64,000 nt of DNA from a virus (IMGVR_UViG_3300023235_000008:62001-126000); one strand, 5' to 3'; numbered from the stretch's first letter, positions 11,533 through 42,680 are shown. The notes: generated from the letters alone by a model not told the origin. Numbers and translations are program-made.

Positions 11533-12070
11533 GATTTCATTATTACCAGAAAAAATCTTCTATACAGGTGCGCCGGGAAGCAAGTGGAGCGGTGTTGCCC
11601 AGAAGTTCGAGCAGAATCACGGATTTGATACATCGGACAGAACGCCATATAGGCAATACAGCCACGGCAAGTTCAGTGGTCATATAGGTGCATATTTCGG
11701 CACAGGTATGGAGTTTCCAGCCCTTGTAGATGATTGGATTTTAAAGAAGCCGTATTCGGACGAAGGTATTCCATTATTGAAGTCACACGAATGGGTATAT
11801 AAACTACCAGAGATTCAGCGAGTATTCCCCGATGATTGGATTGTCTTTGTGTGGCGAGATTCAGAACAATGTTTTGATTGGTGGAAACAAGCGGGTGGAT
11901 GGAATATTACATATCCGAACTACGATTGGTACGTTAACGACAAACTTATGTATGCACGTATCGAAGAACAGAATCAACTTATGCTGGATTTTGCGGCATT
12001 ACATAATCTAGCGTGGCATCAACAATCTCCAAAAACCGATGATGTATGGGTGGCAGTGTATAAGCCGTGA
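11531..12070 (+). CDS. Sulfotransferase-like P-loop protein
   Basis: The N-terminus KIFYTGAPGSKWSGVAQ resembles the PAPS-binding loop of sulfotransferases, and WIVFVWRDSEQCFDWW resembles the 3'-phosphate-binding R-D-S segment. The 179-residue length is shorter than most cellular enzymes but similar to phage versions. If active it would move a sulfate group onto a glycan or small molecule. ATG at 11531 follows TATAAATA; an upstream ATG at 11513 lies inside the divergent gene's start. Confidence 0.5.
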   Translation: MISLLPEKIFYTGAPGSKWSGVAQKFEQNHGFDTSDRTPYRQYSHGKFSGHIGAYFGTGMEFPALVDDWILKKPYSDEGIPLLKSHEWVYKLPEIQRVFPDDWIVFVWRDSEQCFDWWKQAGGWNITYPNYDWYVNDKLMYARIEEQNQLMLDFAALHNLAWHQQSPKTDDVWVAVYKP

Positions 12071-13491
12071 TTATAGCAGCAGCATTAATAGCGGGTATTC
12101 TTTATGGATTTATAGTTGGTATCGTTCCAGCAGCGGGTGCGACCACAGGATTGGTTGCATTGTATGCAGTAATGCCGTTCTTATTGGCTGACCCATATGC
12201 GGGCGTGGTATTCTTAATGGCGGTGGTAGCGGCCTCAACAACCGCCGATAGTTTCACCAGTATCTTATTGGGTATTCCCGGTGCCAATAGTTCAGCAGCC
12301 ACGATGGTTGACGGATTTCCATTAGCACAACAGGGTCGGGCAAGTTATGCCATTTCTGCCGCCGTCACCACATCTACGGTCAACGGATTATTTTGGGGTT
12401 CTATCGTGTTCCTGTTACTTCCTATATACAGTCAAGTCATATTAATCTTTGGTATACCAGAACTATGGGCGTTCACTGTATTGGCATTGGCGACAGTGGG
12501 GTTTCTTTCAACAGACAAGCCACTATTGAGTATAATCGCCATTGGTGCTGGTATCTTCCTTGGATTAGTAGGGGTTGACCCAGCTACCAATGACCCCCGT
12601 TTCACAATGGGATGGTTCTATTTACAAGATGGTATCCAGTTGATTCCAGTGGTGGCAGGATTATTTGCGGTTCCCGAGTTGCTTGAAGGTTTTAAGAAAC
12701 GCCGTGCCACCACAACGGTTGCAAAACGTGAAACTATTGAAGGAATGAAGGCAGTATGGGATAACAAATGGTTATCGATGCGTGGTGGATTTATAGGTGC
12801 GCTTGTTGGATTATTGCCGGGTCTTGGCGGATCGGTCAGTGATTGGTTATCGTATTCACAGGCTGTTGCAAGTAACCCAAATGAAGAGTTTGGTAACGGC
12901 AACATCAAAGGCGTGATTGGACCTGAAGGCTCTAATAATGCACAAAAAGCTACCAGTATGATTCCGACTGTATTGTTCGGTATTCCCGGTGCACCATTCG
13001 CAGCGGTTCTAATGGGATTGTTTGCGTATCTTGGCATAGAGTTGGGTTCACCTGACCTTATGAATGACACACAGTTTTTTCAAAGTATGAGTATCGGTTT
13101 TCTTGCCGCCACCCTAATCGTTGGTATCATTTCATTAATATTCGTTAATACCGTATGCAAAATCACGAGTATTCCATACATATACTATTTTCCGTTGTTA
13201 TTGGTAATGATAGTATGGGCGTGTATGCAATACACGGGTGGATGGGAAGATTTTGCGGTGTTGGCATTCTTTAGTTTTTTTGGAGTGGGTATGAAAAGAT
13301 ATAAATATTCACGACCGGCGTTGTTGGTTGCATTTATTCTAGCAAGCAAAGTAGAAGCATTATCGATACAACTTACAACCCTATACGATTTCACTACCCT
13401 CATAGAAAGACCGCTGTTCTTGATTTTAATGGTTATAATCATTGCGGTGTTCGCATTTAGTTTCAAGAAAGGAAAAATCAAATATGCGTAA
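12067..13491 (+). CDS. tctA: TctA-family tripartite tricarboxylate transporter membrane subunit
   Basis: The large membrane subunit of TTT transporters, which import citrate-like carboxylates with a periplasmic binding protein. The 474-residue protein is made of about 12 hydrophobic segments. Family signatures are the N-terminal GIVPAAGATTGL loop, ILLGIPGANSSAATMVDGFP and the repeated half-site VLFGIPGAPFAAVLMGLF, plus LLPGLGGSVSDW. It starts with GTG overlapping the previous stop and runs into tctC by 8 bases. No 4-segment TctB is seen. A phage-borne transporter would act in the host inner membrane during infection. Confidence 0.88.
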   Translation: MIIAAALIAGILYGFIVGIVPAAGATTGLVALYAVMPFLLADPYAGVVFLMAVVAASTTADSFTSILLGIPGANSSAATMVDGFPLAQQGRASYAISAAVTTSTVNGLFWGSIVFLLLPIYSQVILIFGIPELWAFTVLALATVGFLSTDKPLLSIIAIGAGIFLGLVGVDPATNDPRFTMGWFYLQDGIQLIPVVAGLFAVPELLEGFKKRRATTTVAKRETIEGMKAVWDNKWLSMRGGFIGALVGLLPGLGGSVSDWLSYSQAVASNPNEEFGNGNIKGVIGPEGSNNAQKATSMIPTVLFGIPGAPFAAVLMGLFAYLGIELGSPDLMNDTQFFQSMSIGFLAATLIVGIISLIFVNTVCKITSIPYIYYFPLLLVMIVWACMQYTGGWEDFAVLAFFSFFGVGMKRYKYSRPALLVAFILASKVEALSIQLTTLYDFTTLIERPLFLILMVIIIAVFAFSFKKGKIKYA

Positions 13492-14524
13492 ATTTTTAGT
13501 AGCCTTATTTTTGGTGTTGGCTACACCAGTATCCGCCGATATCACATTCGTTGTGCCACAGAAACCCGGTGGCGGAACAAGTGTTTGGGCACAGATTGTT
13601 GCTACTGAACTTGAAAAGAAACTTGGCGAAAAGATTGTTATTCGCCACATTCCCGGTGCAAGAGACATTCCCGGCTTTAATAAGTTTCATAATGAGTTGC
13701 AGCACGATGATAATATGGTGATGATTTCACACGGCGGTAATGCTGTTAGTTTTCTACAAGAAGAAGTAGATTATAACTATGCTGATTATGATAGCATTGG
13801 TTCAATGAACTTGAATATTTTAGTAGCCAAGAGAGCGGATGCATCTGGCAAGATTAGATTCGCCGCAGGTTCTGGTATGGTTCCAGAAGCATTGGCTATG
13901 TCTATTTTGTTATGCGATGATGGCAAAGCACAAACATATGCATATTATGCTAAGTGTTTCAGTGACAATGTGGTATGGGTTAAAGGAATGAGTGGCGGCG
14001 AACGCAGACTAGCATTCCGCAGAGGCGAACTAACCGCAACTCGTGAAAATCCAGCAGCATTCAAGAAGCACGTTAATCCGATGATTGAATCGGGTGAAGC
14101 ATCATATTGGTTTGACCACGGTGTATTAGATACTGAATCGGGTAAACACACTACCGATCCAAACACTGGCAATACCAAAATAACTGCATTATCGTTAGAT
14201 ACACAATCAAGTGATTTTTATGCAGCATATAATCTAGTTACAAGCTTCCGTGATGGTTTACAGAAGGCATTGTGGGTGCGTAAGGGCAATCCTAATACTG
14301 AAAGATTGCGTCAGGCATTGACAGAAATGGCTAATGATCCAGAATCAGTAAAGATTATCCAATCTAAAGTTGGTGTATACGAATGGAAGATTGGCGAAGT
14401 GGGAAATGCACATCGTGACCGTATTATGAGCTTTGTAACAGAATCATCGTTGCGGGCATTGGTTAGATTTAATAGTGAAGTGCTTGGTTTAAGTAGTGTG
14501 TATAAGAAAGAACTTGTTGATTAA
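13484..14524 (+). CDS. tctC: TctC-type periplasmic solute-binding protein
   Basis: The N-terminus MRKFLVALFLVLATPVSA is a clear signal peptide. The mature protein opens ITFVVPQKPGGGTSVWAQ, the conserved Bug/TctC start (I..VVP..PGGG.D..A), and continues EKLGEKIVIRHIPGA. The 346 residues are close to the family length (about 320-330). It would deliver substrate to TctA. The preferred ATG at 13484 has AGGA upstream and overlaps the tctA stop, so the two are translationally coupled. Confidence 0.85.
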   Translation: MRKFLVALFLVLATPVSADITFVVPQKPGGGTSVWAQIVATELEKKLGEKIVIRHIPGARDIPGFNKFHNELQHDDNMVMISHGGNAVSFLQEEVDYNYADYDSIGSMNLNILVAKRADASGKIRFAAGSGMVPEALAMSILLCDDGKAQTYAYYAKCFSDNVVWVKGMSGGERRLAFRRGELTATRENPAAFKKHVNPMIESGEASYWFDHGVLDTESGKHTTDPNTGNTKITALSLDTQSSDFYAAYNLVTSFRDGLQKALWVRKGNPNTERLRQALTEMANDPESVKIIQSKVGVYEWKIGEVGNAHRDRIMSFVTESSLRALVRFNSEVLGLSSVYKKELVD

Positions 14525-24204: not shown

Positions 24205-24501
24205 ATGAAAATATTACCACGCTATAGAACAGATCAATGGACAAGAGGGGAAGATTTCCCCAACGAGCCGTTTGTGTTTGATGTGCGTAATTGGGACATC
24301 GCTCATACTATGTACCGAATGTTGATGACACCTAAGTTACAACAGGATCGCAATGTAGTCGCAGTATCCTTGCGTGGTATTCCAACCGCTAACGAACTTC
24401 GCTGGTGTGAAAGAGCCGCCAGAAAAGGTAACTTCAGAATAATATGGCTTAGTACAAAAATGAAAGAAACATCAGATGCAGAACTACCTAACAACACTTA
24501 A
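24205..24501 (+). CDS. Hypothetical protein, paralog 1 ([11 protein letters not shown] motif)
   Basis: A 98-residue protein nearly identical in layout to the one at 46087-46374: [23 protein letters not shown], later [13 protein letters not shown]. It overlaps the thymidylate synthase start by 26 bases. Function unknown; the two copies show an internal duplication. Confidence 0.75.
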
Positions 24502-26128
24502 ACACATCATGGACAACGGCGTAGATCGTGGCGATAGAACGGGCACAGGCACACGCTCTGTATTCGCTCACCAGATGCGATTTGATTTGTCAGAAGGCTT
24601 TCCAGCCGTTACAACCAAGAAGCTGGCGTTCAAAGCTGTAAAGAGTGAACTGCTATGGTTCCTAGAAGGGTCTGGTGATGAAAGACGATTAGCTGAAATC
24701 AATGGCACTGAACGCACAATCTGGACTGCTAACGCTGAAGCTGACTATTGGAAACCCAAAGCAAAGTTCGAAGGCGACCTCCAAAAAGTATATGGCTACC
24801 AATGGCGAAAATGGTCAAAATATGATTCTTGGCGAGATTCTGTAACTCTAATAGAACAGGGCACTAAAATTGGTGACGATCAACCATTTTCCTTGGATTT
24901 TGATTTAGAACAAGTAGATTACACAGGTGGTGATGATTTTGTAGGAAAGATTTTTGATACAAATCAATCAGGGCAAATAAAAATTCTTAAAAAACTTGAT
25001 GTGAGAAATGGCAATTCGTATTACCGAGTTCAATTTTTAGAAGGTATCAACACCATCATAGACTGCTCTCGTCCTAACATTCGTTCAAAAACTGTAAAGA
25101 ACCCATATGCCATGACTGCGGCTGAAGGTGCTGGGTGTTATGGAGTAGTCGATAAACGATCAAAATATTTAACATCAGCATATAATATGTGGCTCAATAT
25201 GATGGAGCGGTGTCATGGTGAAAATACTGAGAAGACACTATTTTATAAACAACAAGGTATTTATGTGGATTCTAAGTGGAGATGTTTTAGTAATTTTTAC
25301 AGAGATATTCATGGTTTGGTTGGATTTGACAAATGGGTTATTAACCATTCAAAATATGAATTAGATAAAGATTATTTTGGTAATAAATTTTATGGAATAG
25401 AATCAACTATATTTCTACCTATGTGGTATAATCAATATATTTTACCTAAACATAATAATGATTTGATTATTGCGACCAATAAGAAATCTAATGAAGAATT
25501 CAAATTCACAACACCATCCTTGTTCTATAAACAAAAAGATATTAAAGATACTGATATGGTAAATAGAGCATTCCGTGAACAAAACGGCAATTCTATAAAT
25601 TGGTCATTTAGCAAAAAATCACCGCCAATCGGATATAAATGGAGACAGCAATTTTTTGTAGATCAAATCGCTGATGTCATTGAAAGCATTAAGAATGACC
25701 CTGACAGCCGTAGACATATCGTTACAGCGTATAATCCGGGAGAACTTCAAGATATGGCTCTACCACCGTGTCATATGATCTTTCAATTCTATGTGGCTAA
25801 TGGCAAACTATCATGCCATATGAACCAGCGTTCTTGTGACCTTTTTTTAGGCGTTCCATTCAATATCGCCAGTTATGCTTTACTTACACATATGATTGCT
25901 CAAGTATGCGGGCTTGATGTAGGTGAACTAATCCTGACATTAGGCGATGCTCACATTTATAGCAATCACTTCGATCAAGTCAATGAACAGCTATCACGAG
26001 AACCACAGGATTTACCAACGCTATGGTTGAACCCTGATATTAAAGATATTGATAGTTTCACAATGGATGATATCAAGCTTGAGAACTACAATCCACAGGA
26101 CACTATAAAAGCAAAGATGGCAGTGTGA
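24476..26128 (+). CDS. td: Thymidylate synthase with large in-frame endonuclease-like insertion
   Basis: It makes dTMP from dUMP. Residues 1-113 and about 391-550 form a complete Thy[45 protein letters not shown], catalytic Cys432 in [12 protein letters not shown], and [18 protein letters not shown]. Together they are about 273 residues, the normal size. Residues 114-390 (24815-25645) are extra and stay in frame without stops. This part resembles a phage homing-endonuclease family: an AP2-like half ([14 protein letters not shown]...V.F) and a Y..W..M..RC...F..F...ELDKD..GNK.Y half. GYQWRK before and GYKWRQ after the insertion look like a duplicated target. The insertion is visibly more AT-rich than the flanks. 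Confidence 0.88.
24815..25645 (+). mobile_element. In-frame endonuclease-like insertion in thymidylate synthase
   Basis: About 277 codons with no stop, lacking intein splice residues (no Cys/Ser at the start, no HN-C/S at the end) and lacking the P/Q/R/S elements of a group I intron. It falls in the variable loop between the W of [10 protein letters not shown] and the DQI helix. Whether it stays in the protein, is bypassed in translation or is removed from RNA cannot be told. Confidence 0.65.
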
Positions 26129-28656: not shown

Positions 28657-29088
28657 ATGGAAAAACTAAGTTTTGCGATTACGCTGGCGTCCACTGGTAC
28701 GCCGTATGCACTAGTACACATTAACGATAGATTGATAGATGATTCGATTATCCACGAAGAGAAGATTATCACATTTGAAGTAGAATGCGGCGAAGAAAAC
28801 AAATTAAATATTGAGTTGGGTAATAAGAAAGAATCCGATGTTGTTCTTGATGACGAGGGTAATGTAATCAAAGATCAACTATTGCATATTAAAAAAATAG
28901 AAATAGATGAGATTGATATCACCAATCTTTGTCGGTTTAAATCCAAATATATTCCGTCAGATAGATGGTATGCTGAAAATCATCCCGATACACCCGTATT
29001 ACGCAATCATATGGACCTTGGATGGAATGGCGTATGGTTTATCGAGTTTAATACACCATTTTATATATTTTTGCTAGAAAATATGTAA
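28657..29088 (+). CDS. Hypothetical beta-rich late protein
   Basis: A 143-residue protein that looks like a beta sandwich; its opening resembles the smaller protein at 32868-33143 (INDRL... / VNDEL... and similar strand pattern). It could be a carbohydrate-binding-type decoration module, but this is inference. Confidence 0.65.
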   Translation: MEKLSFAITLASTGTPYALVHINDRLIDDSIIHEEKIITFEVECGEENKLNIELGNKKESDVVLDDEGNVIKDQLLHIKKIEIDEIDITNLCRFKSKYIPSDRWYAENHPDTPVLRNHMDLGWNGVWFIEFNTPFYIFLLENM

Positions 29089-29100
29089 TACGCTAATAGT

Positions 29101-29108
29101 GATAAATA
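29101..29108 (+). promoter_or_regulatory. Late-type promoter motif GATAAATA
   Basis: It is 20 bases before the ATG at 29129, with AGGA between them. Confidence 0.6.
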
Positions 29109-29128
29109 CATTAAATAGGATTTTCATT

Positions 29129-29476
29129 ATGTTTTTAACAGATATTAGCGCACCCGAACACGAAACACTAATTAAAGAATGCAACGAACTACTCGAAGGC
29201 ATTAAACTAGGCGGTCCCGACATTAAGGATCAGCCACGTTCATCGTCACCACCAGATGAAATGAGATTTTCACGCCGCGGCAGAGCTATCTATCCCGGCA
29301 AAACTGGAATCGTGCAAAGTGCTAGCGAATATATCCAACGTGCCAGCGAAATCCTTGATAAAATGAACAATCCTTCTATCAAGCAAGGGCATTTCGAAGC
29401 AGAAGTGTATGACAAGGTTATCACACAGTTACGTGCTATTCGTGACAAACTAGCAACATATAAGGCACAAGCATAA
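29129..29476 (+). CDS. Hypothetical late protein
   Basis: A 115-residue helical protein (MFLTDISAPEHETLIKECNE...). It has a late-type promoter and AGGA, and is coupled by TAATG to the giant gene downstream. Function unknown. Confidence 0.7.
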   Translation: MFLTDISAPEHETLIKECNELLEGIKLGGPDIKDQPRSSSPPDEMRFSRRGRAIYPGKTGIVQSASEYIQRASEILDKMNNPSIKQGHFEAEVYDKVITQLRAIRDKLATYKAQA

Positions 29477-32400
29477 TGAGTTATCTAACCGAAGTAACAA
29501 TGTCGGATTTACAAGGATTGGATCAAGCACTTGATCGTCTTTGGTCTAAACTAGGCATCGATGTAGTATTCACAAAACACTTCGCTGACCGTTTTAACCG
29601 TCCTGAACATAAATCAAAGCCAGTAACACAAAAAGAAGTATATGATTTATTCGTAAAAATTCAAAGCAAACACGGCAACAAGATAAAGCATCTTGGTACT
29701 GATATGGAAGCAGTTATGACTGATCTATCAAATGATTTGAATGTTCCTTTCGTTATCCTTGACAATCCACGACACGACCGCAACCCTGATGCACCTCGTT
29801 TTCAGTTGGTTACCAAAACGATGATGAAGAAGAAAGCATTCAAGCCAACTGGTATCATTAAAAAACAGTTCAAAGTTGAAAATAAGAATCTATCTGAAAA
29901 GAAAAAAGAAGATAAAAAAGGCGGTAACGACGAAATCAACCTATCTAACTTTGACCCGAGCATCTATCCATTTATCAAAAAAGCATTATATCGCTTTCCT
30001 ACCGCACATAATGAGATTGAGGCATTGGCTAAACTTGTTCAAGCCTTAGATTCAAAAGTAGGTGATGGTGCCAAGGAGATGGGCGATATTGAAACCGATT
30101 TAGGCAGTAATGATGATATCACTATGTCAAACCAACGTATTCTTACAGATATTTTGGATAGACTCGAATCGCTGGAACAAACCGTACACACAGAGCAACC
30201 TATTACGACAGAAGGATATGGTTTTGTACACGAAGTTGCAATGAATACCATTACTAAAGGTAAGTTCAATGATTCACTGGTATTGACACTAAATGCCGCC
30301 GAATTTGCGGAGAGTGTTGAAGAAGAAAATATGGAACTCATCGGCAAGGTAGCCAGCTTAAATATTGAGTTTTGGTTATGTGAAGAAATTGAAGAAGTCC
30401 AAATATTTCAACGTGGCGACGATGACAGTCGCACACAAAAAGGTATGCTTAGTTATTGGAAGACAGACGCAGGTTATACTATGGCGGATATGTCAATCCA
30501 CGAGAGTATCCAAGGATACAACGTTGGTTTCCGTTTGTATACGTGGTTGATGAAAAGCCTTGGTTGGACGATTATATCCGATGAAACGCAATCTGAAGGT
30601 GCCATCAAACTATGGAAAAAGATTGTTGCACATCCTAACGTGGTTGCGTGGGGTGAGATTAGTGGCTACAGTGACGGACCAATGCCACTGCATTATGACG
30701 CAGAAGACGATGAGATTGAAGGACCATTGGACACACACCAACCACACTACAATGATTCATTCAGCAAAGAAAAGGAAGACCAATCCGAAAAGTTAAGAAA
30801 GGCTTGGACGGACGGTAAGTTATCCGATGACCGGTATCACAAAGCGATGGCAAAACTTGGCACAGAGTATGCAGATGATATTGAAGGCGAGGCACTTTCG
30901 GGTGATTTGCTTATCTATGCTATGTGGGGTGATAAAAAAACAAACGAATCATTTAGTTTAAAGAAAGCGATTGCTTTAAAAGAATTAAAAATCATTAAAC
31001 CGACAGATACCCGTTGGGATATTCCACGTAACAAAATGCCACAAGTAAGCAGCGATGATATGCCAGAGCTAGTTAAATGGCTCGAAGATCGTGGCGTTTC
31101 ATTCCGTAACAAAAGCGTCGATACCAAATCATTGAAACCCACACAAGGTGAGTTTGATGACGAAAAGATTGAAAAAAGTATTAAGCGTGGTATTTCAACA
31201 AAGCCATTATTGGTAAGTGCTGACAACTATATTGCTGACGGACATCATCGTTGGTTAGCAGCATACAACGTCGGTCAACCTATTAACATCACACAGACAA
31301 GCATCGACATCGAAGAATTGATGGGCTATCTACGCAAGTTTCCGAAGACATTCTACAAAGAACTTGAAGAAGGCGTAGGACGTATTACTGATTACAACAC
31401 TACCGACGATGTTGGTAAGGATGAGACACGAGTGCAGGGAAAAAAGTTCGGATTTGACGTTGACAGTGATGGCTACCCGCCATTGTTAAGTGGTGGGAAT
31501 CGTCGTCGCAAGTTATCGTCAAAAGAGAACACCGAAGCAGCATACAACCTTGGTATTGCAGAAGGATACGATTTCCTGAATGATGAAACCAAGATAAACG
31601 AAAGCCCAGTGTCTAAGTATTGGATTCATCCAGCCAGCAAGAAGATTATTGAGCTAGCCAGCGAAGGTGAACATCATACACAGGATGCTTTATTAAAACC
31701 ACAAAAATATGGTGTGAGCTTTAAAGAGCTTGGCGATAATTACACGCCTACCAGTAAGTATTATGATATTCCCGTTGCTATGATTATGTATGCAAATGGT
31801 TGGGTGCGTTTCAGTTCTGAAAGTGGTAACGGATACTTCACTAGCGACGATAATATGAAGCTAGCAAAAGCATTAGCACTTATTACTGACAATAACATTC
31901 ATATCAAAGTTGCTACTATGGAAAATGAAGCAACAGGGAAGAATGTTAACCTTGATACAAACGCTGCAATGCGTGAATTCAAGAGAACAGGTAAAAAACC
32001 AGTGTCCAAGATGGCAGCATTCCGTGAAAGTCAGTTGAAAGATGATGAAACTTTGGAACTACCTGACATCGACGTTGGCGACGAACTTATGGTTGGGAAG
32101 TTCAAGAACCGCAAGGCTACTGTCAAAGGCTTTAAGAAAGACAAACACCAGCAGCCGATAGCGAAAACCGATAAAGGCGACCAGCAAATATTCAAAGGTC
32201 GTGTAAAGAAATTAATGCCCGAGACACAGTTGAATGAAATTGAAAGTCCAGTCAAAACTGTTATTCTATATAAGTTGTTTAAAACTGATGCCAGCGGAAA
32301 GATTTATCCACTGTATATCGATGCTAAAACACCTGTTCCAGTAGGTAAATGGTTACCAGCAAAAATCGGCGAAATGACACCTACCGGCGGTAAAGTGAAA

Positions 32401-37070: not shown

Positions 37071-37903
37071 TTATCTAAAAAGACTAAGGATTGCTTGTTC
37101 AGATTGAACAGCAAGACTCAACGAGTTGTTAGCTAGTGCTTGGCGTGTCTGAAGAGCTAGCAAGTTAGCTGATTCTTCGTTTAGGTCTGCGTTGACCAAG
37201 TTACCAGCGCCTTCTTTGAGGCTGTTAATCATATTAGCTGTGAACTCTTCACGTGACTGAATCAACGCTGCATTTGTACCAAGCGTCTTAGCTGATGTAC
37301 GAACAGTTGACAATGCTGCATCAATCTTTGCGATATCAACATCAATGGCGGTCGTACCAGTTGCTATGGTGGCGTTTTCCCAATCACCAGCGTCGGTTAC
37401 TGCAAGACCAACTTGATCAGAAGCAATACCCGCAACCGTCAATGTTGTTGTGGTTTCGTTTAGCTTCACGGTCAAGCTATCTGGCGTAGCTTTCAGTAGT
37501 CCAACACCATTGAATGTAGCGTCTGCACTGGTGTTGTTGATCTGGTCAAGAATACCATCATATTGTGCTGAGAATGTAGTACGTTCTGCCACGCTTGAAG
37601 ATGCTTTAGCAGATTCAGCAACAGCTTTTGCTTGCTTTAGCAGACCTTCAATGGACTCTAGAGCATCAGTAGCTGTTTGTACAGTAACGATGTTGTTTGC
37701 TAGGTTTTCTTTTACCGTCAATAGATCGGATGCCGACTGCTTAAACCACGTGCAATAAAGAATGATGATGGATTATCAATAACATTGTTGACTTTCTTTC
37801 CTGACGAAAGGCGTCCTTGTGTCATTTCTAAGAGGTTAGTTGTATTTTGTAGTGAGTTTAGGTTACTGCGAATACTCGCAGATAGAGTTACTTCGTTTGA
37901 CAT
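37071..37903 (-). pseudogene. Flagellin split by a single-base frameshift
   Basis: The 5' part (37903 to about 37742) encodes a typical flagellin start: LSASIRSNLNSLQNTTNLLE, TQGRLSSGKKVNNVIDNPSS, FFIARGL. The 3' part encodes QSASDLLTVKENLANNIVTV, ALESIEGLLKQAKAVAESAK and the conserved end EESANLLALQTRQALANNSL...ILSLF. Joined, they make a normal short flagellin of about 275 residues. The frame breaks at 37740-37745: one extra A (TTAAAG instead of TTAAG) would restore ARGLKQSASDLL. Upstream is AAGGAG and, at 37984-37991, a late-type GATAAATA. A flagellin gene is unusual in a phage; it resembles alphaproteobacterial (Rhodospirillales-like) flagellins. Confidence 0.85.
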
Positions 37904-38646: not shown

Positions 38647-40290
38647 TTGAGTTACGTTGACGCAATCTACGATAAACGAAATAACGTTGTTAAGGTAGTT
38701 GAAAGACTGAATGGTAAACGAATAGTAACCGAACATCCGTGTAAATGGACGTTTTATTATGACGATCCAGCTGGAAAGTATAATACTATTTTTCGTAATC
38801 CTGTTTCCAAATTCGAATCTGATAGTAAAAAGGAATTTCATCGTGAGTTGAAAAGTCGTAGTCAGACACGTGTATGGGAAAGTGATATAAATATTGTTAA
38901 TAAGACACTTGAACGTCACTATATTGGGCAGATGTCGCCCAAGCTAAACGTGTGCTTCTTCGATATTGAGGTTGACTTTTCGCCTACGCTTGGTTTTGCG
39001 CCACCCGATGACCCGTTCAATAAAGTAACGGCTATCTCATTATATTGTTCGTGGATGGATGAAATGGTTACGTTAGCTATTCCACCAAATACACTGACGC
39101 TTGAAGAAGCCGAGGCAATGATGGATTTCCCCAACACATACCTATTCAGTAACGAAGGGGATATGATTGAAACGTTCCTTGACTTAATCCAAGAAGCCGA
39201 TGTGCTTACGGGTTGGAACAGTGAAGGCTACGATATTCCGTATATGGTTAACCGAACGGCACGGGTTCTTAGTAAGAATGACACACGCCGTTTCTGTTTA
39301 CTTGACCAACTCCCAAAAGAACGTGAATACGAAAAATATGGCAAGATGCAAAAGACGTATGATTTACGTGGACGTATTCACTTGGATAGCCTATCATTGT
39401 ATCAGCAATATACCTATCACGAAATGCATTCGTATTCGTTGGATACCATTTCTGAATATGAACTAGGTGCCCGTAAAATCCAATACGCAGGATCGCTAGA
39501 TAAGTTATACAATGACGACTTTTATAAGTTCATTGAATACAACCGTCAGGATACTTTGCTATTAAAGCAACTTGATGATAAGCTACAGTTTATTGATCTA
39601 TGCAATGAAATCGCACACGATAATACAGTGCTTATTGCGGCAGCTATGGGTGCCGTTGGTGTTACTGACCAAGCCCTTATCAACTATGCGCATTCACTTG
39701 ATATGGTTGTGCCTAATAAGGTTCATTATGGCGACGACGAAGATCACCGTGCGGCTGGTGCTTATGTGGCGCATCCGAAGAAAGGCACACATAAATGGGT
39801 AGGTGCTATCGATATTAACTCACTATATCCATCGGCTATTCGTGCATTGAATATGAGTCCCGAGACATTTGTAGCACAGTTATTGCCTACACATACACGT
39901 CCGCTTATTGAAAAACGAATGGCTGAAGGCAAGTCGTTTGCAGGAGCATGGGAAGGGTTATTTGGTACACTTGAATATTCCTTTATGGATGATAAAGATG
40001 ATACCACACCACTCAAAGTACAATGGGCAGATGGCAAGCAAACCACACATACTGGCAAGGAAATTAACGATATTATTTTCCATGGTGGTGAAAAATGGGT
40101 AGTAAGCGGTAACGGCACAGTATTTGAGTATAATAAGCAAGGCATCATTCCCGGCATACTTGAAAAATGGTACGCAGAACGCCAAGAACTACAAGCCAAG
40201 AAGAAGGCAGCGGCGGTTATTGATGATTCTACCATAGAAGTACCTAATGATATTATGTCTAAACTTGGAAAGGATTTGATAGACGACTAA
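38647..40290 (+). CDS. 43A: DNA polymerase (gp43-type) N-terminal piece: exonuclease and palm motif A
   Basis: First of three cistrons for the replicative family B polymerase. The 547 residues carry Exo I (CFFDIEVDF, D106/E108), Exo II (LTGWNSEGYDIPYM), Exo III (YNRQDTLLL) and palm motif A (AIDINSLYPSAIRALN). It starts with TTG after AGGAG. It ends at DIMSKLGKDLIDD, before the fingers motif B that is found in the next piece. It must assemble with, or be otherwise joined to, the other two products. Confidence 0.88.
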   Translation: MSYVDAIYDKRNNVVKVVERLNGKRIVTEHPCKWTFYYDDPAGKYNTIFRNPVSKFESDSKKEFHRELKSRSQTRVWESDINIVNKTLERHYIGQMSPKLNVCFFDIEVDFSPTLGFAPPDDPFNKVTAISLYCSWMDEMVTLAIPPNTLTLEEAEAMMDFPNTYLFSNEGDMIETFLDLIQEADVLTGWNSEGYDIPYMVNRTARVLSKNDTRRFCLLDQLPKEREYEKYGKMQKTYDLRGRIHLDSLSLYQQYTYHEMHSYSLDTISEYELGARKIQYAGSLDKLYNDDFYKFIEYNRQDTLLLKQLDDKLQFIDLCNEIAHDNTVLIAAAMGAVGVTDQALINYAHSLDMVVPNKVHYGDDEDHRAAGAYVAHPKKGTHKWVGAIDINSLYPSAIRALNMSPETFVAQLLPTHTRPLIEKRMAEGKSFAGAWEGLFGTLEYSFMDDKDDTTPLKVQWADGKQTTHTGKEINDIIFHGGEKWVVSGNGTVFEYNKQGIIPGILEKWYAERQELQAKKKAAAVIDDSTIEVPNDIMSKLGKDLIDD

Positions 40291-40312
40291 TCTCGTCTTT
40301 TGTCCTAAATAA

Positions 40313-40669
40313 ACCAAACAATATGAGTTTCTAAAAGAGAATGAAGTTGAAAGTCACCATTACCGTTATGACGGGCATTCTGTTAAAAATATAAAGTGCT
40401 ATAAGTATAAAGATTATATTGCTATTGGCGGCAAAAATATGATATCATTATTACAAGAGAATCAAATAGATATTCCAAGAAAATACGTGGATGATATAGA
40501 AATGTCTTTTCCTAAACCTCATCACAATATGCGTGAAGATAGGAAAAACTTTTTCGGTGAATATCACGGGAAATGCCTAAAAGATTTAGGTGTTGCCAAA
40601 TATAAACTCACAGAGATAGGAGAATTGAATGGATTTAGTCTCTACAATCCAAGACCTCATCAGCAATAA
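40313..40669 (+). pseudogene. Unidentified ORF in the gap between polymerase pieces
   Basis: About 118 codons are open in one frame (YEFLKENEVESHHYRYDG...KYVDDIEMSFPKPHHNMRED...LYNPRPHQQ) with no good start codon before the ATG at 40439. It separates the first and second polymerase pieces and overlaps the start of the second. It probably represents an inserted element or its remains; I cannot assign it to a nuclease family. The sequence GGATTT occurs at both edges. Confidence 0.45.
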
Positions 40670-41582
40670 CGAAACTGAAAAGTTAGAACAAGTGATGAGA
40701 GAAAACGATTTGGTTGTAAGAAACGGCAAGATTGAAAACAAAGATAGGGGTGCAGTAGCATTCCGGGATAAGCGGCAGTTGGTCAAAAAGATCAACTTGA
40801 ATTCGTAAATATTGCGACTTTATATAGTAATATATAATGAAAAACTCCTCTAACTGCGGGGAACTCTCACCGAGACAATCCGCAGCCAAGCCCGTAAGGG
40901 AAGGTTCAACGACTATGCGAAAGCAGTAGTATCAAGTGATACGAAACGGGGAGCAACCTTCAAGGTTGGTGATATAGTCTAATCTGTATGGCGACATACA
41001 GCAGTTCATGAGAGAACGCACATAAACTAACGACTTATGTGGAATATAAATGTGTATGGTGCTGTATTGAATAAGCATTGTCGTTTCTACGTCTTTGATA
41101 TCGGACAGTCAACCACACTAACTGGTCGGTGTATTGCAAAGCATATGTCAGCATACGTGAATCAATCACTGGCGGGTGAATACGATCATACTGGAAAAAG
41201 TATTGTGTATGGCGACACAGACTCAGAATTTGCCGAAACCATACACAAGACCAATTGGGGTGAGCTTACCGTAGAAGAATTGTTCAACCGAGGGCAGCGT
41301 TATTGGAATGATGCCAAGGATGATACAAAGGAATATAGTGCTAACGATGATTTGAAGGTTCTTTCGTATAACCCGGAAGAAGGCAAAGCGTATTACGGGC
41401 ACATCAATTATATCTACAGGCATAAGGTATCTAAAGAACAATGGGAAATTGAGGATCAATATGGTAATACCATTCGTGTAACTGGCGATCACTCAGTTAT
41501 GGTTGAGAGAGATGGCGTATTGATGGAAATAAAACCACGAGATATATTGAAGGATGATTTACTTATTACTACTACTGAATAA
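40629..41582 (+). CDS. 43B: DNA polymerase middle piece (motifs B and C) with intron and N-terminal intein half
   Basis: Second polymerase cistron. Its ATG has TAGGAG 7 bases upstream. Exon 1 (40629-40806) ends with AFRDKRQLVKKINLNS; after removal of the group I intron (40807-41052), exon 2 continues LYGAVLNKHCRFY, giving NSLYGAVLN, the standard motif B. Motif C YGDTD follows and is then interrupted by an intein half beginning Ser (codon 41223-41225). Without splicing, exon 1 stops at TAA right after the splice site. Confidence 0.85.
40807..41052 (+). mobile_element. Group I intron in the DNA polymerase gene
   Basis: A 246-base intron without an ORF. The exon ends in T and the intron in G, as required. 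Removal restores AAT TCG TTG TAT GGT (N S L Y G). The 5' exon end TCGT can pair with GCGA at 40814-40817 as P1 with the U-G pair at the splice site. P4: CTGCGG (40854-40859) with CCGCAG (40881-40886). P7: GACTAT (40911-40916) with ATAGTC (40974-40979). P9: CTGTATG-GCGA-CATACAG (40984-41001). Confidence 0.88.
41223..41582 (+). other. N-terminal half of a split intein (DNA polymerase motif C site)
   Basis: The intein starts with Ser directly after YGDTD, a known polymerase intein site. Block A is SEFAETIHKTNWGELTVEEL; block B is IRVTGDHSVMVERDGVLMEI, the TxxH splicing motif. The frame stops after LLITTTE (119 residues), with no linker to the C-terminal half, which is in a separate reading frame start at 41691. 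Confidence 0.85.
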
Positions 41583-41584
41583 GG

Positions 41585-41701
41585 TCTTCATCATATGCTA
41601 CCAATAATGGATACGAGGTATTTGTTATCTGGGAAAATGATTGGTATCACGACCAATATACTATTATACAACGAGTAAAGGAATGGTGGAATGGAAGTTA
41701 A
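41585..41701 (+). pseudogene. C-terminal relic of a homing endonuclease inside the split intein
   Basis: A 38-codon fragment reading NNGYEVFVIWENDWYHDQYT...QRVKEWW. GYxVxxIWExDW is the typical end of Vsr-like/EDxHD or related homing endonucleases that sit between split-intein halves in T4-like phages. The rest of the gene is gone, and the intein C-half start lies inside its last codons. Confidence 0.6.
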
Positions 41702-42680
41702 AAAAGCTAAAGTAAAATCTGTCAAACAGTTAGACAACTTTGATGATGAATATGTCTATGACATAGGCATGAAGAATGAAGAGCATCCATGGTTCTTCGG
41801 CAACAACATTCTCGTTCATAACAGCGTGTATTTTTCAATGTGGCCAGTTATCGAAGATGCGGTTAATAATGGTGAAATGGAATGGTCGAAAAAAATCTGC
41901 ACCGAAGTATACGATCAGGTGTCGGAAGCCGTAAATGAATCGTTTCCTCCGTTTATGAAGAAAGCATTTAACTGTCCGCAACATATGGGCGAAATCATTG
42001 AAGGTGGCCGAGAACTTATCGCAACAAAAGGATTGTTCATAAAGAAGAAGCGGTATGGTCTTATGATTTATGACGACGAAGGAACACGCCGTGATGTTGA
42101 TGGCAAAGAGGGCAAAGTCAAAGCTATGGGCTTGGACTTGAAGCGTTCGGATACGCCGGGGTATATGCAAGAATTTCTTATGGAAATCCTTATCGATGTG
42201 TTAACAGACAAAGAAGAAGATGAAATCATTGGTAAGATTTTTGACTTCAAAAAAGAGTTTGTAGAACGTCCGCCTTGGGAAAAAGGTACGCCAAAACGTG
42301 TGAACAACCTTACCAAGTACACCAAGATGTATGAAAATAAGGGCATGAAAGGCGTAATGATTCCCGGTCACGTATCGGCAGCTATTCATTGGAATAAGTT
42401 AAAAAAGTTCTATTCTGATAACTATTCAATGGATATTCAAGACGGTCAAAAGACTATTGTGTGTAAGTTAAAGAATAATCCGCTTGGATATACGAGCATC
42501 GGGTATCCGATTGATGAACCACATATTCCAGACTGGTTTAAGGATTTGCCGTTTGATAACGAGTTAATGCTTGCAACTATTGTGGATCAAAAAATTAAAA
42601 ACTTGCTTGGTGTTATGAAGTGGGATTTGGATACTAAAACAGACGTTACTTCGACTTTTAATACACTATTTGATGTATAG
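41691..42680 (+). CDS. 43C: DNA polymerase C-terminal piece with C-terminal intein half
   Basis: Third polymerase cistron, 329 residues. Residues 1-44 (41691-41822) are the intein C-half: EYVYDIGMKNEEHPWFFGNN (block F) and ILVHN at the splice junction. The extein resumes with SVYFSMWPVIE, completing motif C (YGDTD-SVYFS), then the thumb (KAMGLDLKRSDTPGYMQEFL) and the clamp-binding C-terminus (VTSTFNTLFDV). Ribosome binding site AAGGA lies 10 bases upstream. Confidence 0.88.
   Translation: MEVKKAKVKSVKQLDNFDDEYVYDIGMKNEEHPWFFGNNILVHNSVYFSMWPVIEDAVNNGEMEWSKKICTEVYDQVSEAVNESFPPFMKKAFNCPQHMGEIIEGGRELIATKGLFIKKKRYGLMIYDDEGTRRDVDGKEGKVKAMGLDLKRSDTPGYMQEFLMEILIDVLTDKEEDEIIGKIFDFKKEFVERPPWEKGTPKRVNNLTKYTKMYENKGMKGVMIPGHVSAAIHWNKLKKFYSDNYSMDIQDGQKTIVCKLKNNPLGYTSIGYPIDEPHIPDWFKDLPFDNELMLATIVDQKIKNLLGVMKWDLDTKTDVTSTFNTLFDV

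What the first reader, a model, noticed from the sequence alone, without database searches (positions are those of the whole stretch)
38647..42680. Replicative DNA polymerase spread over three cistrons and several mobile elements
Motifs for exonuclease and motif A lie in piece one (38647-40290), motif B and C in piece two (40629-41582), and thumb in piece three (41691-42680). Pieces one and two are split by an unidentified insert; piece two holds a group I intron; pieces two and three are joined only through split intein halves. One polymerase therefore would need protein association, RNA splicing and protein trans-splicing. Each layer is read directly from motifs; the combination in one gene is unusual.
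Basis: partly seen in the sequence, partly recalled or inferred. Interest (0 to 1): 0.9.

Follow-up and report, generated by a model that had tools for sequence, protein, structure and literature searches.

The report
Phage DNA polymerase in three cistrons
A large bacterial virus carries its only detected family-B DNA polymerase gene in three separate pieces, one of them also interrupted by a self-splicing intron and two of them joined by a split intein; this is a real and striking arrangement, but the same combination is already annotated in a fish-pathogen phage (Aeromonas phage Aes508), so it is a new, distant example of a known kind.

Summary
A family-B (gp43-type) polymerase lies in three cistrons at 38647-40290, 40629-41582 and 41691-42680. 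All exonuclease and polymerase motifs are intact. A group I intron at 40807-41052 scores 105.8 bits, and its removal restores NSLYGA. A cysteine-free split intein sits exactly at motif C (YGDTD^SVYFS). The 230-kb record shows no other PolB. Two other assemblies carry the same arrangement at over 99.9% identity, so it is not an assembly error.

The 108 nt between the intein halves hold the C-terminal remnant of an EDxHD/VSR-like homing endonuclease. The insert between pieces one and two falls at the tip of the fingers domain. It holds a 106-codon orphan frame with no relative found.

The proposed mechanism is plausible: two-subunit association at the fingers, RNA splicing, then protein trans-splicing. 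None of it was tested experimentally.

The claim of an unusual combination needs correcting. Aeromonas phage Aes508 is annotated with the same three-cistron plan: 43A, 43B-1 with group I intron and N-intein, and 43B-2 with C-intein. What differs here is a distant jumbo-phage host, a different intron site, and no intact homing endonuclease left at this locus. Verdict: new member of a known kind.

The parts
38647..40290 (+). PolB piece one (547 aa): N-terminal domain, 3'-5' exonuclease, palm motif A, first half of fingers
   Evidence: Pfam DNA_pol_B_exo1 1.1e-21, DNA_pol_B 9e-11; PHROG 262 E=3e-114; TTG start with AGGAG 6 nt upstream
40281..40298 (+). Hairpin around the stop codon of piece one (6-bp stem, 6-nt loop, then TTTG); terminator-like, significance weak
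   Evidence: 1 found, 2.9 expected in shuffles; fold z = -2.45
40291..40628 (+). Insert between pieces one and two, with GGATTT at both edges (near 40273 and 40631), about 32% GC against 40% for the window, with a stop-free frame of 106 codons inside the insert (open frame about 40313-40669, runs into piece two in another frame); origin unknown, probably decayed ORF of a mobile element
   Evidence: 106 codons reached in 10 of 2000 shuffles; no Pfam hit, only weak PHROG hits; no relative in IMG/VR except the same phage, none in GTDB contigs, only E>=0.2 matches in phage records; AlphaFold pLDDT 48
40629..40806 (+). PolB piece two, exon 1: second half of fingers and start of motif B (ATG, Shine-Dalgarno AGGAG 6 nt upstream)
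   Evidence: aligns with uninterrupted relatives
40807..41052 (+). Group I intron, 246 nt, no endonuclease ORF, inserted in the Leu codon of NS-L-YG (motif B)
   Evidence: Rfam RF00028 105.8 bits; splice junction restores NSLYGA; only group I intron found in the record
41053..41222 (+). PolB piece two, exon 2: rest of motif B to motif C YGDTD
41223..41582 (+). N-half of split intein (119 aa, begins Ser1, no cysteine) with stop
   Evidence: Pfam Intein_splicing 4e-8; 43-49% identity to PA5oct and SCTP-2 inteins; 9HTH match
41582..41698 (+). C-terminal remnant of an EDxHD/VSR-like homing endonuclease between the intein halves; also carries the Shine-Dalgarno of piece three (AAGGA, 41678)
   Evidence: Best match to the endonuclease between the intein halves of Klebsiella phage KP13-7 (46% over 28 aa, 0 of 500 shuffles as good); Pfam MTES_1575 E=0.014
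41691..41822 (+). C-half of split intein (44 aa, ends His-Asn, no cysteine)
41823..42680 (+). PolB piece three extein: SVYFS after motif C, KKKRYG (42042), palm end and thumb
   Evidence: PHROG 1918 4e-50; 54% identity to PA5oct, 73% to L020

Best explanation
This is the sole detected replicative family-B polymerase of a jumbo phage, invaded three times by mobile elements that have since lost their endonucleases at this locus. (1) An insertion at the tip of the fingers split the gene into two independently translated cistrons. Their products most likely associate non-covalently, as 43A and 43B of Aeromonas phage 25 are reported to do. The cistron boundaries and ribosome-binding sites are shown here; the association is inferred. 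(2) A group I intron without its own endonuclease interrupts motif B and must be spliced from the mRNA. The intron fold and the clean junction are shown; splicing itself is inferred. (3) A cysteine-free split intein at YGDTD^S joins pieces two and three by trans-splicing. The halves, catalytic termini and restored junction are shown; splicing is inferred. The endonuclease that once sat between the halves has been deleted down to about its last 39 codons, which still hold the ribosome-binding site of piece three. The product would be a two-subunit polymerase: piece one plus the ligated two-three.
For: The three pieces are the only PolB matches in the 230-kb record. All exonuclease and polymerase motifs are intact over the pieces. 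Joined in order, the exteins align along RB69 gp43 and with uninterrupted relatives, 70% identical to L014/L020 over 881 residues. The intron is at 105.8 bits, with the junction restored exactly. Intein homology is seen at the same residue in PA5oct and MIJ3 and to the structure 9HTH of the Aes123 PolB1 intein, a split intein shown to trans-splice. The endonuclease remnant matches the endonuclease in the same position in KP13-7. The fingers-tip split recurs in Atu_ph07 and in Aes508. The architecture is identical in three assemblies. The precedent Aes508 has all three layers.
Against: No RNA or protein data exist for this phage. The insert between pieces one and two has no identified relative, so its mobile-element origin is inferred. 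The IMG/VR record may be incomplete, so another polymerase cannot be wholly excluded. The closest relatives (L014, L020) have short fingers tips, so the local history of the fingers extension is unclear.
Confidence: 0.82

Rival explanations
1. The locus is a decayed pseudogene: the polymerase was broken by mobile elements and the phage replicates with another polymerase or that of the host.
For: The endonucleases at the locus are decayed, a nearby flagellin-like gene is frameshifted, and the record may be incomplete.
Against: All catalytic motifs are intact, each piece has a start codon with a Shine-Dalgarno site, the intron and intein junctions are exact, no stop or frameshift lies within the polymerase pieces, and three assemblies agree. 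No other PolB was found; other polymerase families were not searched for.
Confidence: 0.07
2. Pieces one and two are not separate subunits: the roughly 340-nt insert is bypassed by the ribosome (like T4 gene 60) or removed as an unrecognised intron, giving one chain through KDL-VSTIQDL.
For: GGATTT occurs at both edges of the insert, the stop codon of piece one lies in the loop of a hairpin, and joining GATTT to AGTC would give the continuous reading found in unsplit relatives.
Against: Piece two has its own ATG with a well-spaced AGGAG. No intron family matched even with permissive thresholds. T4 gene 60 bypasses about 50 nt, far shorter (own knowledge). The same fingers split occurs as two plain cistrons in Atu_ph07 and with an endonuclease gene in Aes508.
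Confidence: 0.06
3. The three-cistron gene is an assembly or binning artefact.
For: The sequence is metagenomic.
Against: Two other IMG/VR contigs from separate metagenomes carry the same arrangement at 99.98-99.99% identity over 10-15 kb, and the elements are known polymerase parasites at matching sites.
Confidence: 0.02

Closest known systems
Gene 43 of Aeromonas phage Aes508 (NC_019543) and relatives Aes123, Aes144, Aes509, Aes512, Aes516, Aes517, AS-gz
   Same: In Aes508 (inspected) three polymerase cistrons: 43A split at the fingers tip, 43B-1 with a group I intron in motif B and N-intein, 43B-2 with C-intein at YxDTD^S; VSR-like endonuclease between intein halves. The relatives were seen only as intein hits in PolB genes.
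   Different: Aes508 is a T4-type Straboviridae phage with intact endonucleases (GIY-YIG-like and VSR-like) in both gaps; its intron lies about 4 codons further downstream (YGA-L-GN, inferred junction); intein 29% identical. Here both gaps hold only remnants.
Gene 43A/43B of Aeromonas phages 25 and 44RR (Petrov, Ratnayaka and Karam 2010, as cited in PMC2988022 and PMC2993671)
   Same: Polymerase split in two cistrons by a mobile insertion or untranslated spacer; phage 25 also has an endonuclease-less group I intron in 43B; 43A and 43B co-purify with polymerase activity.
   Different: The passages read describe no intein for phage 25.
Split-intein PolB of jumbo phages PA5oct and MIJ3
   Same: Split intein at the identical YGDTD^S position, 43% identical N-half, 54% identical piece-three match.
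   Different: Fingers not split, no group I intron, full-length homing endonuclease between the halves.
Tenacibaculum phage PTm1 split polymerase
   Same: Three cistrons with fingers-region split and split intein, VSR endonuclease between intein halves.
   Different: No group I intron in motif B; very distant polymerase.
Agrobacterium phage Atu_ph07 polymerase
   Same: Split into two cistrons at the same fingers-tip position.
   Different: Only 18 nt between cistrons, no intron, no intein.
Aes123 PolB1 (CL/CLm) and LCGC14 cysteine-less split inteins (PMC11923092, PMC12707363)
   Same: Ser1/Ser+1 class, no catalytic cysteine; best solved-structure match of the intein here is 9HTH.
   Different: Low identity; activity of this intein not known.

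Membership tests
Family B (gp43-type) DNA polymerase | Exo I-III and palm motifs A, B, C plus KxY, in order | tested here: met
   All present over the three pieces; Pfam and PHROG matches; alignment with RB69 gp43
Family B (gp43-type) DNA polymerase | Polymerase activity of the assembled protein | not testable with these tools
   Needs expression and assay
Group I intron | Conserved catalytic core and secondary structure | tested here: met
   RF00028 full-length match 1-253, 105.8 bits against cut-off 50
Group I intron | U.G pair at 5' splice site and terminal G of the intron, exons joined in frame | tested here: met
   Exon UCGU pairs with GCGA; intron ends G at 41052; NSLYGA restored
Group I intron | Self-splicing | not testable with these tools
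   In vitro splicing or RT-PCR needed
Split intein (class 1) | Nucleophile at position 1, block B TxxH, C-terminal HN and nucleophile +1 | tested here: met
   Ser1 at 41223, TGDH, ILVHN, Ser+1 at 41823; Pfam Intein_splicing 53.6 bits with halves read together
Split intein (class 1) | Halves encoded in separate genes and spliced in trans | tested here: inconclusive
   Separate ORFs with own start sites shown; trans-splicing not testable here
Fractured gene (split intein plus endonuclease between halves, Dassa type) | Endonuclease gene between the intein halves | tested here: not met
   Only about the last 39 codons remain; a decayed derivative
Split gp43 of Aes508 type | Split at fingers tip plus group I intron in motif B plus split intein at motif C in one polymerase | tested here: met
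   All three found at corresponding positions, intron site about 4 codons apart
Split gp43 of Aes508 type | Common descent of the three interruptions | tested here: inconclusive
   The closest relatives found, L014/L020, are uninterrupted and the intron site differs, which points to separate acquisition; no tree of the elements was built

The most novel reading that the evidence does not exclude
The same triple interruption (fingers-tip split, motif B intron, motif C split intein) arose separately in a jumbo phage and in Aeromonas T4-type phages, and here persists after the endonucleases at the locus were lost, so that it is now a fixed, immobile and possibly regulated assembly pathway of an essential replication enzyme rather than an active selfish element.
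Probability: 0.15. Interest if true: 0.7.

Novelty: new member of a known kind. Interest (0 to 1): 0.45.

Why it matters
It shows that an essential replication enzyme can carry a subunit split, an RNA intron and a split intein at once, in a phage far from the one annotated precedent, and keep them after the locus has lost its homing endonucleases. That bears on whether such elements are only selfish or become fixed parts of gene expression. It also adds a naturally cysteine-free split intein, a class described as rare and wanted for protein engineering (PMC12707363), in a polymerase suited to testing ordered assembly of a three-piece enzyme.

Tried and rejected
Identification of the 40291-40628 insert: no Pfam hit; weak PHROG hits (best phrog_4210, E=0.003, over part of a 1304-aa polymerase profile; treated as chance); tblastn in phage records gave only E>=0.2. 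IMG/VR returned only the same phage, GTDB contigs nothing; no second copy in the genome. Similarity to six endonuclease-like proteins of related loci was no better than shuffles. AlphaFold of its frame gave mean pLDDT 48, too low for a fold search, so none was run. An unrecognised intron in the insert: none at permissive Rfam threshold. Assembly artefact: rejected. Second polymerase: only family B was searched, none found in the held record. Dassa et al. 2009 (fractured genes) was not held and could not be read.

Full report
What is there. The window is bases 62001-126000 of a 230,059-base virus record whose polymerase is most like those of jumbo phages such as Pseudomonas phage PA5oct and Agrobacterium phage Atu_ph07. 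Piece one (38647-40290) carries the exonuclease motifs FDIEV, GWNSEGYD and YNRQDT and palm motif A DINSLYPS. Piece two (40629-41582) carries motif B and motif C. Piece three (41691-42680) carries the KKKRYG motif, the rest of the palm and the thumb. Each piece has a start codon with a Shine-Dalgarno sequence: AGGAG 6 nt before TTG 38647, AGGAG 6 nt before ATG 40629, AAGGA 8 nt before ATG 41691. A search of the whole record for the family finds only these three pieces.

Intron. The only Rfam match in the window at gathering level is a full-length group I intron, 105.8 bits; it is also the only one found in the record. Without splicing, the frame meets a stop right after the NS codons at the junction. 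Exact removal of 40807-41052 satisfies the U.G and terminal-G rules and restores KKINLNSLYGAVLN, the sequence seen in uninterrupted relatives. The intron has no endonuclease frame.

Intein. Piece two ends in an intein N-half of 119 residues starting with Ser and containing TGDH. Piece three begins with a 44-residue C-half ending ILVHN before Ser+1. Neither half holds a cysteine. With stops read through, the two halves score 53.6 bits against the Pfam intein model, over its cut-off. The insertion point is YGDTD^SVYFS, the same as in PA5oct and MIJ3, while KP13-7, SCTP-2 and L111 carry inteins two residues upstream (YGD^TD). The closest solved relative is 9HTH, the Aes123 PolB1 intein.

What separates the cistrons. 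Between the intein halves, one frame reads RSSSYATNNGYEVFVIWENDWYHDQYTIIQRVKEWWNGS. It matches the C-terminus of the endonuclease located between the intein halves of Klebsiella phage KP13-7 (46% over 28 residues; no shuffle of 500 as good) and, more weakly, those of PTm1 and Aes508. It is best read as a deletion remnant, and the part kept includes the ribosome-binding site of piece three. Between pieces one and two lie 338 nt of lower GC content (about 32%) with GGATTT at both edges and a 106-codon stop-free frame, reached in only 10 of 2000 dinucleotide shuffles, so probably once coding. No relative was found anywhere except the same phage, so calling it a mobile-element remnant is inference. 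The split falls at the tip of the fingers: in the alignment to RB69 gp43, piece one ends beyond the KWYAERQELQAKK helix (RB69 about 489) and piece two resumes before NSLYGA. Phosso, PBECO4 and PA5oct have an unsplit extension here, the nearest relatives L014/L020 have none, and Atu_ph07 is split in the same place with an 18-nt spacer.

Reality and rarity. Contigs from two other metagenomes have the same sequence at 99.98-99.99% identity. Of 90 related IMG/VR loci examined, 79 encode an uninterrupted polymerase over the stretch held, 8 are truncated, and the only 3 with interruptions are copies of this phage; one truncated locus, L111, shows an intein at the other motif C site. Loci were selected on piece one or piece three, L012 and L032 are the same contig, and in the larger scan only the best 80 of 597 relatives were kept, so these are not frequencies.

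How it most likely works. Piece one and the ligated product of pieces two and three form a two-subunit polymerase meeting at the fingers. Piece two needs RNA splicing before translation through motif C, and the chain is continuous past motif C only after trans-splicing of pieces two and three. Non-covalent assembly is inferred from phage 25, where 43A and 43B co-purify and have activity (PMC2988022). Trans-splicing is inferred from the homologous Aes123 PolB1 intein, which does splice in trans (PMC11923092). None of these steps was shown for this phage.

What is known. Aeromonas phage Aes508 is annotated with all three layers in one polymerase: gp43A, an endonuclease, gp43B-1 'N-terminal fragment including group I intron and N-intein', a second ORF with a VSR-like domain, and gp43B-2 with the C-intein. 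I checked its sequence: the split is at the fingers tip, the intron is in motif B with an inferred junction about four codons downstream of the one here, and the intein is at YIDTD^S. Phage 25 has the split and an endonuclease-less intron (PMC2993671). MIJ3 was published with a split polymerase B and split intein (PMC6892783). Hence the combination is precedented. What is new is its presence in a very different phage, a different intron site, the loss of the endonucleases at this locus, and a new cysteine-free split intein.

Verdict. Observation confirmed, mechanism plausible and untested, novelty limited to a new member of a known kind; interest 0.45. The phage as a whole is rich in such elements: it also has a split intein with an intact endonuclease-like ORF in a UDP-glucose/GDP-mannose dehydrogenase gene and an intein in its portal protein gene, both outside the window.

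Noticed in passing
Outside the window: L120 1457-3919 (G000:C1 about 28956-31418): A second split intein in the same phage, in a UDP-glucose/GDP-mannose dehydrogenase gene (N-half before, C-half ending IVIHN^CHPRDN, rebuilding GMGDGGA-CHPRDN), with a 271-aa endonuclease-like ORF between the halves.
   Followed up: partly
Outside the window: L121 1135-4077 (G000:C1 about 220634-223576): A contiguous intein of roughly 400 aa inside the T4-type portal protein (Portal_T4 E=9e-92; Intein_splicing E=7e-8).
   Followed up: partly
window 37071-37903, - strand: A flagellin-like gene (Flagellin_N and Flagellin_C matches) in two overlapping frames, as if frameshifted near 37727; the same in contig L013. 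A flagellin homologue in a phage is odd.
   Followed up: partly
window 24476-26128, + strand: Thymidylate synthase ORF of 550 aa with about 260 extra residues in frame in the middle; the insert has no significant Pfam match (best E=0.058) and no obvious intein ends.
   Followed up: partly
window 12067-14524, + strand: A tripartite tricarboxylate transporter TctA gene (E=6e-95) followed by an ORF starting like a secreted protein: cellular-type metabolic genes in a phage.
   Followed up: no
L111 1943-4090: Another polymerase of the same group with an intein at the YGD^TD site, cut off by the contig end.
   Followed up: no
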